Source: Cylindrobasidium torrendii FP15055 ss-10 (taxonomy: Eukaryota; Basidiomycota; Agaricomycetes; Agaricales; Physalacriaceae). From it: 64,000 nucleotides of DNA. The stretch spans positions 83,646-147,645 of the forward strand of contig KN880470.1 of the NCBI GenBank assembly GCA_000934385.1, read 5' to 3'. This document shows, in pieces, positions 28,896 to 35,596 of the stretch (the first letter of the stretch is position 1; the number at the start of each line of letters is the position of its first letter). Position numbers and translations under genes: made by a program. A model generated the notes under the pieces. That model worked only from the letters and a program-made list of their open reading frames with translations. It did not search any database and was not told the DNA's origin.

Positions 28896-28905
28896 AGCCG
28901 ATCGC
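28896..28905. repeat. Candidate target-site duplication, left copy
   Basis: AGCCGATCGC, present in the same orientation at 35587-35596 immediately outside the other inverted repeat. Because CGATCG is itself a palindrome, part of this match could instead belong to the inverted repeats. Confidence 0.65.
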
Positions 28906-29080
28906 TAGTCTCGAGCCAGTACGCCCGACTCGTCGACGATAACAAGTGATGTGCCTTGCCGGGCGTCTGGAAGGATTCGGAGCCTATAAGGGGGGGCACC
29001 AAATTGATGATCCAATCAGCCATCACTTACCCGGGTTTTCGCACTTCAACTTGAGAAACGAAAGGCAAAATCTCAAATGC
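28906..29080 (+). repeat. Left terminal inverted repeat of the DUF6589-helicase element
   Basis: Matches the reverse complement of 35416-35586. The inner part is almost identical: GCACTTCAACTTGAGAAACG, ACCCGGGTTTTC, AGCCATCAC and ATTGATGAT are shared, as is GGAAGGATTCGG. The outer part is conserved as structure rather than sequence (see the hairpin). An inward-facing CCTATAAGGGGGGG lies at 28983-28996. Confidence 0.92.
28916..28970. repeat. Terminal hairpin, left end
   Basis: CCAGTACGCCCG at 28916-28927 pairs with CGGGCGTCTGG at 28960-28970, leaving one unpaired base. The loop contains GTCGAC. Total span is 55 bases, identical to the right-end hairpin. Confidence 0.8.
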
Positions 29081-29365
29081 ACGGTGCGGTTTAAATATCA
29101 TTGCCAATAGGTTGTTATTAGTGACTATACAACCGCTTTTGAAAATTAAATCCTTAAGGCTCGATTTCGAGCACGTACAACCATATTAGTGCATCGGATT
29201 CGGTGGCCTGTCAAGTCATTTACAAAGTTGTCAACGAGCGATACAAGGTCAAATGTAATGTAGAACATCGGGAGTAATATACATTATGTATACGGCGAGT
29301 CTTTCAGGCAAGTCTCTTCAGTCTGACTCCTAAGGTTTGAGTCCGTGTCTATCTGCCAAACCATC
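29081..29365. other. Left subterminal region and promoter of the DUF6589 gene
   Basis: AT-rich sequence between the inverted repeat and the DUF6589 start codon. It contains AATATACATTATGTATAC near 29276-29293. No reading frame of interest. Confidence 0.5.
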
Positions 29366-32300
29366 ATGAGCGACCAACCCAAACGACCCCGTAGTGCCGA
29401 ACCAGAGTCGCCACGACATGCGCGAAAGCGATTTGCACTTTACGAGTCTGAAGACGACAGCGAGGGTGTTGGGCCGCCATCCTCGCCGACCGACCATGTT
29501 GCCCAGCGGCGCCGTCTGCCACCTCGTCATGTTAGCTCTCCAGGAGACCCTATATCAGCATCGGCGCCTTCCCAGAGGCAACCAACATTGAACGCAATGG
29601 TACCTTCGGTTTCGACCTCTCTCAATATTCCACCATATCGCCCGCGAAAGACTTGGACACCTTCGAGGCGTGATGCTGCACGCGAGGCCGAGCGCCTGAC
29701 CGAACTGGAGATGACACCGAGCACAGTCGCTGTGCTTGAGGATGCTAGACGCACTGCAAAAGTGAAAAGCGTCGCTTTTGTGGAAGATGAGAAGAGCAAG
29801 CGCGAGCGCCAAAATGCGGCAGCTGGACAGGCTCAGCAGCGGGCAAGGGAGATTGAATTAACGCTGGCAAGGGAAAAGGCCAGAGATGATGCGAAGGTCG
29901 AAAAGGAGCAGATTCGGCAAGCCGGGCGTGCAAGGATGCTTGAGGGGATTGAGAAAAGAGAGGGAAAGCAGGCCAGGCATAAGGAGCCCGAGGATCCAGC
30001 CGCAAAACGAGCGAGTGCGAGGGCAGTGTGGAAGGATGCAAGGGAGAGAGGCTTCGGAAATCCTGCAGAGTTCATTAGACACCTTGTTAGCGGGGGCGGA
30101 GAGGATTCCACGCACGATGGAAGCTTGTCCCAGTTCTATGCCCATGCCAGCGACCTGGCCAGCGTGCTCCACGATGCCAAACCGGGCTGCCTCGATGATT
30201 TTGTCGCCAAACGCCACGCTGATATTCTCCGTATCGAAGCAAGCCAGTTGAAAGCTCATTTCTCCCGTAATCCACAGGTTTCGCTGTCCAAGCTTCTGCA
30301 GGATTTTTCACTTGACAATCTGGCTAAGGAGTTGCCGGTCGTTGCACCTACACTGTGGGAGCTCCTGCGGATTGTTGGAGAGCCTGTGCGGCCAGAAATT
30401 GGGGCGACAAAGCAGAGTACGCGACGTGACCCGGACATGGTGAGTTGAGGTCAAGCAGCACTGTTGATCGCACATTTACCCCGCTTACCCCGCTTACCCC
30501 GCACTTAGATTCGAACCACCATATTCGCAATGCTAGCCATTTCTCTTTCCCAGCGCGCAAACACTTTCCAGACCGTGATTGGCCTCTTTCTCATCGGTTC
30601 TGGGGTGGCCAAAAAGACTGTGGAAGTATTATCCCATGCCGGCTTTTGTGCATCGTATTCCACCATCCTGGAACATATTGGTACGCTCTCAAACGAAGCC
30701 ACACAAGTCTATCGCAAAGTAATGCTGGAGTGCATGTGCTCTATTGTTTGGGATAACCTGAACATTGCCTTTCGAGTGGAAGCCCAACGTATGGACTCCC
30801 AAAACCATTTTGATAATGGAACAACCGCCACATTAATCGCTCTTCGAGATCCAGCCACCGGCGCTCGTGTACCCCACGGAACTCTACCTCTCGATATGAA
30901 GCCCCCACGCACATCAAGCAAGTCCATTGAGTCGTGGACTGTCGAGCAGACCGCTCTCACGCACTCCGATGCAATAATTCTTGAGCAGTGTTCGCTGTGG
31001 CAGCTGCGTCAACTAGCCATCGATGTCATTCCTTCATTGTCACATCTCAAGTCTTCCCTCGAGCCATGCCCCACTGTTGAGCAGATAAAGGTGCACAAGA
31101 CGGAGCAGTATCCTCTCCCAGCCTTACACGAAGACGAGTCAAGCATCGACGGGACTTTGAGCGTATACAAGGCTCTCTTCAAGGCTGTTGGTGTCGACTC
31201 CGGTGAGAAGGTACAGTCTCACGGGCTCTTCTTCTTGGATGGCGACCAGCTTACTGAGTCGCTGATTAACAAGGTGAATGACTTGTTCATTGTGCCATTC
31301 ACGTCTCTCATAATCTCATCTACAGCTCGAGTCTGCCCGCCGAAATGGAAATGACGAAATCGAGTCCTTCCTGTCAGTCATCCGGCGGTTTGGGGGATTT
31401 CACGCAAAGATGGCAGGATGTCGGGCAGTGGTGAACGAGCACTGGAATAAGCACGGCGCCACTTCGGGTCTCTGGTTCGAGAACAATCAGACGCTCCAGC
31501 GCAAGAACATGGTTGCTGGATGGGAGAAGCAGAAAGCTACTCGCTGGAAAGTTTCTCACGAGCTCATAGAGCTCTCGATACGCGGGCATATTTTGGATGC
31601 TCTCCGTATCTCTTGTGGCCATGAAGACATCGACACATGGGCATTATTTGCTTCCAAGGACGACTTCAATACCGTTACCCGTGCGGCTTATGACAACCTC
31701 TTTACAACGATGGCATATGAGGAGGCAACAGACCACATCAAGCGCGATACAACCTTTGAGAACTCTATTCTCCAGAATCGAGATATGCTGTGGTATGTTG
31801 TCCTGGTGAATTCAGTTCGCGCGGGTGACATTGGTCGCGTCATTCTTGTCTATCGGGTCTGGATGGTCATGATGCGGACACCCAAAACCATGCCCAAATA
31901 TGCCGATGCGTTTTTCAAGACGTTTGCGCGACTTGACTTATTTCCGGCCACTCTTCGGTGCGTTACCACTGCCGCAAAGCTCAAACAATGTCCTAACATT
32001 TGGATGCTAGTACCTTCTTTCTGCACAACTGGCTTGTCAACATAACGGGTCTCCCTAATCGCTTCAAAGAGATTGATTTACTTCAAGAGCATCTCAACTT
32101 TTGGGCAAAGGTACGTGCATGTCTTCAAGCAGTGTCATGTAGGTACTTACATCTTCAATCCTATGAAGATCATTTACAACGCAAAAGGCGTCAACCGGAC
32201 TTGGGAATGGCTTGCCAAGGTAACAGTCTGCATCTATGCTCTTCGTGATGCCATGCGAACCGTCCAGAAAGCGTACAAGATACCGGAATACGGGCTTTTG

Positions 32301-35258: not shown

Positions 35259-35415
35259 GACGGATGATAGAGGGCAAAAAATAGTTAAAGGGGAGTCTCA
35301 AATTCCATGCGTAATAGTCCGTTTTACTTCCGGAGAGCGATCACATAAATCAAGATAAATGTATAGCAAAGAGTACATCGCAAAAAAAATACATGTTAGT
35401 GCGCAAGTTGGCAAA
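35259..35415. other. Right subterminal region and promoter of the helicase gene
   Basis: AT-rich spacer between the helicase start and the right inverted repeat, with A-runs near 35275 and 35381. No gene. Confidence 0.45.
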
Positions 35416-35586
35416 GTGCATTTTGCGCTTTCGTTTCTCAAGTTGAAGTGCGAAAACCCGGGTGAGTGATGGCTGATAGCATCATCAATTTCCTACCCCC
35501 CCTTATAGGCCCCGAATCCTTCCAGTCGCTTCGCCGTAAGGCCTGATCGACTATCATCAGGCGGCGAAGTGGCTGGTGTCGAGTCT
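35416..35586 (-). repeat. Right terminal inverted repeat of the DUF6589-helicase element
   Basis: Reverse complement of 28906-29080. CGTTTCTCAAGTTGAAGTGC is shared without mismatch, followed by GAAAACCCGGGT and CCCCCCCTTATAGG. The outer 65 bases differ in sequence but keep the hairpin. Confidence 0.92.
35522..35576. repeat. Terminal hairpin, right end
   Basis: Outer clamp CCAG (35522-35525) with CTGG (35573-35576); main stem CTTCGCCG (35529-35536) with CGGCGAAG (35562-35569); a further inner stem CCTGAT/ATCAGG. Span 55 bases, as at the left end. Confidence 0.8.
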
Positions 35587-35596
35587 AGCCGATCGC
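35587..35596. repeat. Candidate target-site duplication, right copy
   Basis: AGCCGATCGC, identical and in the same orientation as 28896-28905. Confidence 0.65.

What the first reader, a model, noticed from the sequence alone, without database searches (positions are those of the whole stretch)
28896..35596. A 6.7-kb DNA transposon pairing a DUF6589 protein with a RecQ-bromodomain helicase
Long inverted repeats (28906-29080 and 35416-35586), a flanking 10-bp direct repeat AGCCGATCGC, and two intact convergent genes define a complete element. DUF6589 has no assigned function that I know of; inside such ends it is best read as the transposase, with the helicase as an accessory factor. Helicase-bearing Academ-type elements have been described in fungi and animals, so this may be a member or a relative. 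The bromodomain and terminal hairpins are features I do not know from those.
Basis: partly seen in the sequence, partly recalled or inferred. Interest (0 to 1): 0.92.

Follow-up and report, generated by a model that had tools for sequence, protein, structure and literature searches.

The report
Helicase-carrying jumping gene of a mushroom
A 6.7-kb mobile DNA element in a mushroom genome carries an uncharacterised protein family that is very probably its cutting enzyme plus a helicase fused to a chromatin-reading domain, and its relatives have left an unusual set of tiny hairpin-bounded remnants in the same genome.

Summary
Confirmed: a complete two-gene DNA transposon (28906-35587, 6682 bp) in Cylindrobasidium torrendii, with inverted ends that start in hairpins and two apparently intact convergent genes, DUF6589 (1031 aa) and a RecQ-like helicase with bromodomain (786 aa). 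The target duplication is 9 bp, not 10: among 23 insertions picked because a duplication was found, 22 are exact over 9 bp and the tenth base agrees in only 5. Three other in-genome DUF6589 loci also lie beside a helicase. In 34 DUF6589 proteins the acids kept in 94% or more are D, D, D, E, as in a DDE transposase. Helicase plus 9-10-bp duplications is the published AcademH signature; homology to the Academ transposase and the fold could not be tested. New as far as searched: DUF6589 as transposase, the bromodomain (15 of 16 listed fungal relatives of 735 aa or more), terminal hairpins shared with a distant family, and 15 insertions of 43-111 bp with private duplications and 15 different interiors, reaching no further than the hairpins: probably excision scars.

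The parts
28897..28905 (.). target site duplication, left copy GCCGATCGC
   Evidence: exact match to 35588-35596
28906..35587 (.). complete element, 6682 bp, termini TAG...CTA
28916..28970 (+). left terminal hairpin (CCAG...CTGG stem)
   Evidence: DNA fold: 9 of 200 dinucleotide shuffles as stable with 70 nt, 19 of 200 with 80 nt: modest alone
28963..29064 (+). inner inverted repeat, left arm
   Evidence: 92% complementary to right arm
29366..30439 (+). DUF6589 transposase, exon 1
   Evidence: gene model with GT-AG introns
30509..31273 (+). DUF6589 transposase, exon 2
   Evidence: Pfam PF20231
30752..30754 (+). codon of first candidate catalytic D (WDN-N motif, D440 of 1031 aa; D250 of P0002)
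   Evidence: D in 33 of 34 proteins; position
31244..31246 (+). codon of second candidate catalytic D (GD-LT motif, D604)
   Evidence: D in 32 of 34; position
31326..31957 (+). DUF6589 transposase, exon 3
32011..32110 (+). DUF6589 transposase, exon 4
32087..32089 (+). codon of candidate catalytic E (D---E--N motif, E850)
   Evidence: E in 34 of 34; position
32169..32693 (+). DUF6589 transposase, exon 5 with stop
   Evidence: the acceptor agrees with the public protein P0002
32708..32989 (-). helicase exon 5 (end of the bromodomain, stop)
32810..33098 (-). bromodomain (residues 673-753), spans the last intron
   Evidence: PF00439 E 3.8e-14
33036..33631 (-). helicase exon 4
33682..34177 (-). helicase exon 3
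34224..34847 (-). helicase exon 2 (DEAH motif)
34896..35258 (-). helicase exon 1 (start codon, Walker A motif TGGGKT)
35428..35529 (-). inner inverted repeat, right arm
35522..35576 (+). right terminal hairpin (CCAG...CTGG, CTTCGCC/GGCGAAG stem)
   Evidence: 0 of 200 shuffles as stable, z -6.0; first ~25 nt of the end conserved in the C337 family
35588..35596 (.). target site duplication, right copy

Best explanation
The window holds a complete, perhaps still functional AcademH-type DNA transposon. The DUF6589 protein is its DDE transposase: it binds the TAG...CTA ends, cuts the element out and joins it to a 9-bp staggered target. The RecQ-like helicase acts with it, most likely by unwinding or remodelling the hairpin-bearing ends; the bromodomain would tether the complex to acetylated chromatin. 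SHOWN by sequence: mobility in the past (recurring ends, exact 9-bp duplications), the two-gene unit, the conserved acids, the terminal hairpins, the bromodomain. INFERRED: catalysis by DUF6589, the helicase's role, chromatin tethering, and that the short hairpin-bounded insertions are scars of departed elements.
For: Recurring ends: 16 matches in the genome besides the element's own two. Exact 9-bp duplications at 22 of 23 insertions tabulated in three families, window, C17 and C337 (the 23rd has 8 of 9; the 23 were chosen because a duplication had been found, see full report for the sites without one). C17 has 301-nt identical inverted ends and its second flank in contig C295 carries the matching duplication. 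Deletion copies of 1533 bp (C34) and 1299 bp (C59). DUF6589 beside a helicase on 4 of 5 contigs, both gene orders. In other Agaricomycetes, 12 of the 38 named fungal hits among the 120 listed helicase hits share species and contig length with one of the 120 listed DUF6589 hits, one on a 4460-bp contig. D 33/34, D 32/34, D 33/34, E 34/34. RecQ core: E 2e-32 to a solved RecQ. AcademH makes 9-10-bp duplications and has a helicase (PMC10045372 passages).
Against: No Academ transposase sequence was available for comparison. No transposase model appears for the window's protein in Pfam or among the 25 shown of 33 families touched by 42 relatives at E up to 10; solved structures give only one chance-level match, E 8.2. 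The RNase H fold was not tested (structure prediction not accepted). No empty allele could be examined. Contig-length pairing shows same contig, not adjacency, on large contigs. C147 and C46 hold helicase relatives with no DUF6589 match listed on their contigs.
Confidence: 0.82

Rival explanations
1. It works the same way, but DUF6589 elements are a separate superfamily: the helicase and the 9-bp duplication were acquired independently of AcademH.
For: No sequence link to Academ could be tested; Pfam, solved structures and NCBIfam show no transposase kinship in what they listed. RecQ helicases also occur in KolobokH (PMC9587614 passage), so helicase uptake has happened more than once.
Against: Helicase plus 9-10-bp duplication together is the published AcademH signature (PMC10045372 passages), and AcademH is reported from Basidiomycota (PMC10799480 passage).
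Confidence: 0.15
2. The 43-111-bp insertions are an ordinary miniature family (MITEs) moved by the transposase, whose interiors later drifted, rather than scars of departed full-size elements.
For: Four two-ended copies (C104, C64, C16, C304) have similar interiors, 102-107 bp long and differing at the junction; 11 of 15 keep at least part of both ends, so they could be moved. No full-size parent of this sister family was found in the assembly.
Against: 15 of 15 interiors differ although most left ends are nearly identical; four keep only the left end and could not be moved as a pair of ends; retained pieces stop at reference positions 57 (left) and 60 (right).
Confidence: 0.3
3. Host genes: a conserved DUF6589-helicase pair, not a mobile element.
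For: Both genes are intact here and lie on shared contigs in other species.
Against: Exact duplications, inverted ends, internally deleted copies and variable gene order.
Confidence: 0.02

Closest known systems
AcademH (lineage of Academ DNA transposons; Kojima 2020, paper not held, known here only through passages of PMC10045372 and PMC10799480 and citations)
   Same: Helicase beside the transposase; 9-bp duplications (AcademH 9 or 10 bp); reported from Basidiomycota
   Different: Bromodomain on the helicase and hairpins at the termini are not mentioned in the passages read; whether they are in the original paper could not be checked. Homology of DUF6589 to the Academ transposase untested
AcademX
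   Same: Same superfamily by the literature
   Different: 3-4-bp duplications and a nuclease in place of the helicase (PMC10045372 passages)
KolobokH (fungal Kolobok with RecQ helicase)
   Same: RecQ helicase associated with a transposase, fungi (PMC9587614 passage)
   Different: Helicase encoded downstream of the transposase domain (same passage); Kolobok duplicates TTAA (recalled); here a separate convergent gene and 9-bp duplications of varied sequence
P element
   Same: Possible analogy only: very long stagger at donor cleavage, 17 nt, and internally deleted copies (PMC7776569 passages)
   Different: 8-bp duplications, THAP-type transposase needing GTP, no helicase (8 bp seen for zebrafish P-like elements and GTP in the passages; the rest recalled)

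Membership tests
AcademH | encodes a helicase with the transposase | tested here: met
   RecQ-like helicase in the element and beside DUF6589 on 4 of 5 contigs
AcademH | 9- or 10-bp target duplication | tested here: met
   exact 9 bp at 22 of 23 insertions where a duplication was found
AcademH | DDE transposase | tested here: inconclusive
   D/D/E conserved in 32-34 of 34 proteins; fold not predicted
AcademH | transposase homologous to Academ transposases | not testable with these tools
   no Academ reference sequence at hand; Kojima 2020 not held
AcademH | terminal inverted repeats | tested here: met
   window and C17; in C337 only the first bases of the two ends agree
Kolobok / KolobokH | TTAA duplication (recalled) | tested here: not met
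   9-bp duplications of varied sequence
Mutator (MULE) | MULE transposase domain PF10551 | tested here: not met
   not among the matches of the window's transposase nor among the 25 shown of 33 families for 42 relatives at E up to 10
Helitron | no target duplication; Rep and PIF1-type helicase in one protein (recalled) | tested here: not met
   9-bp duplications; RecQ-like helicase in a separate gene

The most novel reading that the evidence does not exclude
The transposase-helicase pair cuts the two strands very far apart: one at the outer terminus, the other at the base of the terminal hairpin about 57-60 nt inside. Excision would then leave hairpin-bearing single strands on both flanks; trimming and joining them gives the 43-111-bp scars seen at 15 sites, with limits at the hairpin bases. 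The helicase would be needed to open that interval, a mode of donor cleavage not known to me from any DDE transposon.
Probability: 0.18. Interest if true: 0.78.

Novelty: new variant of a known kind. Interest (0 to 1): 0.5.

Why it matters
It gives a likely function to DUF6589, a Pfam family of unknown function found in many mushroom genomes (201 and 103 proteins at E 0.001 or better in two capped searches) and named in no paper of the searched library. It supplies apparently intact gene pairs with defined ends for testing why some DDE transposons carry a helicase. The hairpin-bounded short insertions offer a genomic record of how such an element may leave, and the bromodomain suggests a testable link between transposition and acetylated chromatin.

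Tried and rejected
10-bp duplication: rejected, the tenth base agrees by chance. Age from the 92% inner arms: rejected, because by eye the C34 deletion copy shares part of the left-right asymmetry, so it is at least partly inherited. KolobokH, MULE, Helitron: rejected on duplication or domains. Promoter targeting: a codon-usage test of flanking gene direction left 37 of 46 sides uncalled (5 upstream, 4 downstream), so nothing can be said. Target preference: G at position -4 in 14 of 23, weak and not corrected for 21 positions. A pattern search with the C17 flank was near chance (74 and 74 matches against 59 and 67 for the reversed control) and gave nothing. Reaching animal relatives of DUF6589: every listed hit that carries an organism name is a fungus, others are unnamed. 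Left hairpins alone are weak, and the C337 left end has none (92 of 200 shuffles as stable). No tRNA in the window.

Full report
WHAT IS THERE. The element runs from 28906 to 35587 (6682 bp) between two copies of GCCGATCGC. Its termini are TAGTCTCGAGCCAG and TAGACTCGACACCAG. Behind each terminus lies a hairpin with a CCAG...CTGG base, different in sequence on the two sides, and behind the hairpin a 102-nt arm that is 92% complementary to the other. The right hairpin is far more stable than chance (0 of 200 dinucleotide shuffles, z -6.0), the left one modestly so (9 of 200 with 70 nt; 19 of 200 with 80 nt).

GENES. The plus-strand gene is modelled in five exons and encodes 1031 aa with DUF6589 (PF20231) at E 1.1e-102; the minus-strand gene in five exons and encodes 786 aa with DEAD, Helicase_C and a C-terminal bromodomain. 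The helicase core is RecQ-like (best RecQ in solved structures E 2e-32; the top listed match, polybromo-1, is to the bromodomain). The introns are GT-AG and no stop interrupts either frame; the models are mine, without transcript support. A public protein, P0002 (841 aa), from Cylindrobasidium torrendii FP15055 ss-10, on a contig of the same length as ours (147645), matches the transposase from residue 191 on, which names the host.

THE ENDS RECUR. The first 195 nt match 18 places in the 29.3-Mb genome, two of them the element's own ends. C34 holds a 1533-bp deletion copy with its own duplication CAGCGGAGC. Contigs C60 and C93 overlap in a copy of several hundred bases flanked by ATCTACAAC. 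Two further DUF6589 families define their own ends: C17 with 301-nt identical inverted ends, whose right flank lies in contig C295 with the matching duplication CGGGGAGCC; and C337 with CTTTCCTAT, whose family also has C59 (TGTTCGCAT), C339/C302 (GTTTCACAC) and C353/C10 (GAATTGCCC). Of 23 insertions tabulated, 22 have an exact 9-bp duplication and one has 8 of 9. These 23 were chosen because a duplication had been found, so 22 of 23 is a measure of its length and exactness, not of how many ends have one. The tenth base would agree in 5 of 23, about chance, so the duplication is 9 bp.

WHAT WAS NOT COUNTED. Of 20 loci examined, 12 had an exact duplication within 250 bp and one had 8 of 9; of the other seven, C40, C34a, C60 and C93 belong to larger copies and C272, C77 and C487 showed none. 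Of 13 end-like sites, two had an exact duplication (C186, C214), one had 8 of 9 (C12, left out of the 23) and ten none. Of 11 end loci of the C337 family, eight pair up in the four insertions above and three (C127, C222, C69) have no partner. The sites without a duplication are old ends or chance matches: the reversed-pattern control gave 19 matches against 34, though 0 against 18 for the stricter pattern.

TWO GENES, ONE UNIT. Pfam finds DUF6589 on five contigs (a lower bound). Four have a helicase match within about 3 kb: window and C136 convergent, C337 and C17 divergent; the fifth, C266, lies at a contig end. No ends were found for C136 or C266. In the protein database, 12 of the 38 named fungal hits among 120 listed helicase hits (2001 in all) share species and contig length with one of the 120 listed DUF6589 hits (201 in all), including one 4460-bp contig. 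On large contigs this shows linkage only loosely.

BROMODOMAIN. It occurs in 19 of these 38 and in 15 of the 16 that are at least 735 aa long, but not in the scanned helicase frames of C17, C337 or C136. It is a mark of this lineage. C337 and C136 were scanned piecewise, so a short missed exon cannot be excluded.

TRANSPOSASE. In 34 DUF6589 proteins from two subfamilies the acidic positions conserved in at least 94% are D250 (33), D414 (32), D656 (33) and E660 (34), P0002 numbering. The 34 were chosen by me from the hits. This is the pattern of a DDE catalytic triad. The first D lies upstream of the Pfam match (314-710). No transposase model appears among the families shown, solved structures give one chance-level match, and the fold could not be predicted.

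TERMINAL HAIRPINS. The first ~25 nt of the right end (TAG.CTCG...CCA..C.CTTCGC) are kept between the window family and the C337 family (in C127 one base of CTTCGC differs), whose transposases are about 25% identical over the longest aligned stretch. Both families then fold back through CTTCGCC/GGCGAAG with different inner stems. In the C17 family a T-A pair of the stem is C-G in the C217 copy. The left end of C337 shows no hairpin (92 of 200 shuffles), so the feature is not universal.

SHORT INSERTIONS. Fifteen insertions of 43-111 bp carry the ends of a sister of the window family. Fourteen have an exact private 9-bp duplication, one 8 of 9. All 15 interiors differ. By end matching the longest left piece is 57 nt, reached by five, which is the last paired base of the left hairpin in C304; the longest right piece is 60 nt, reached by two, which is the outer base of the stem as folded in C270. 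The references were built from the copies themselves, so these limits are observed maxima. The script measured gapped copies too short (C179, C52 and C186 on the left, C214 on the right); I judged those by eye, and none passes reference position 57 on the left. Four keep the left end only, ending exactly at the duplication; none of ten right-end matches is right-only, but three older right-type ends (C1, C168, C225) showed no partner or duplication. If break points were uniform over 28-57, five or more at one preset position would have probability about 1e-4; the position was not preset, and four of the five may share ancestry. The C60/C93 copy also breaks after about 50 nt on the left, by eye.

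HOW IT LIKELY WORKS. Cut-and-paste by DUF6589 with a 9-bp staggered target is the best reading. The short insertions are best explained as scars: the element left, and the flanks kept pieces of the hairpins. Two mechanisms fit: repair copying that stalls at the hairpins, or donor cuts staggered by some 57 nt as an exaggerated form of the 17-nt stagger of the P element (PMC7776569 passage). I prefer the first as more conservative, and give the second as the novel case.

LITERATURE. PMC10045372 (passages): AcademH makes 9 or 10 bp, AcademX 3 or 4 bp duplications, linked to helicase and nuclease. PMC10799480 (passages): AcademH in Basidiomycota, Ascomycota and Mucoromycota at low copy. PMC9587614 (passages): KolobokH with RecQ. 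PMC8290104 (passages): putative non-autonomous Academ insertions widespread in Marasmius oreades. PMC7776569 (passages): P element. PMC12210899, PMC9970103 and PMC12730594 (passages) added nothing. Kojima 2020 was not held and not read. 'DUF6589' occurs in 0 papers of the library; bromodomain with transposon, transposase, RecQ and terminal inverted in 0. Novelty claims rest on these searches only.

VERDICT. A new variant of a known kind: an AcademH-type transposon with a probable identity for DUF6589, a bromodomain helicase and hairpin ends, and an unusual set of hairpin-bounded short insertions.

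Noticed in passing
28863-28905 and 35597-35660: The element sits in a gap of about 101 bp between two divergent start codons: an RPC4-like RNA polymerase III subunit (PF05132 in a downstream frame; start codon my reading) and a gene I read as xanthine phosphoribosyltransferase from recall (no tool match); a possible promoter insertion.
   Followed up: partly
30476-30502: Three perfect copies of a 9-bp unit TTACCCCGC inside intron 1 of the transposase gene.
   Followed up: no
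56950-57066, minus strand: U6 spliceosomal RNA gene, 117 nt against a 105-position model; the extra bases were not examined.
   Followed up: no
L053 (C147:7670-8254) and L054 (C46:136423-136962): Relatives of the element's helicase (45% and 37% identity over the queried exon) on contigs without a listed DUF6589 match.
   Followed up: no
contig pairs C17|C295, C302|C339, C10|C353, C60|C93: Duplications (and for C60/C93 overlapping sequence) indicate that these contigs are two sides of single insertions; the assembly breaks inside the elements.
   Followed up: partly
23 target sites: G four bases before the duplication in 14 of 23 sites, with a weaker matching C on the other side (9 of 23): a possible palindromic target preference.
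   Followed up: partly
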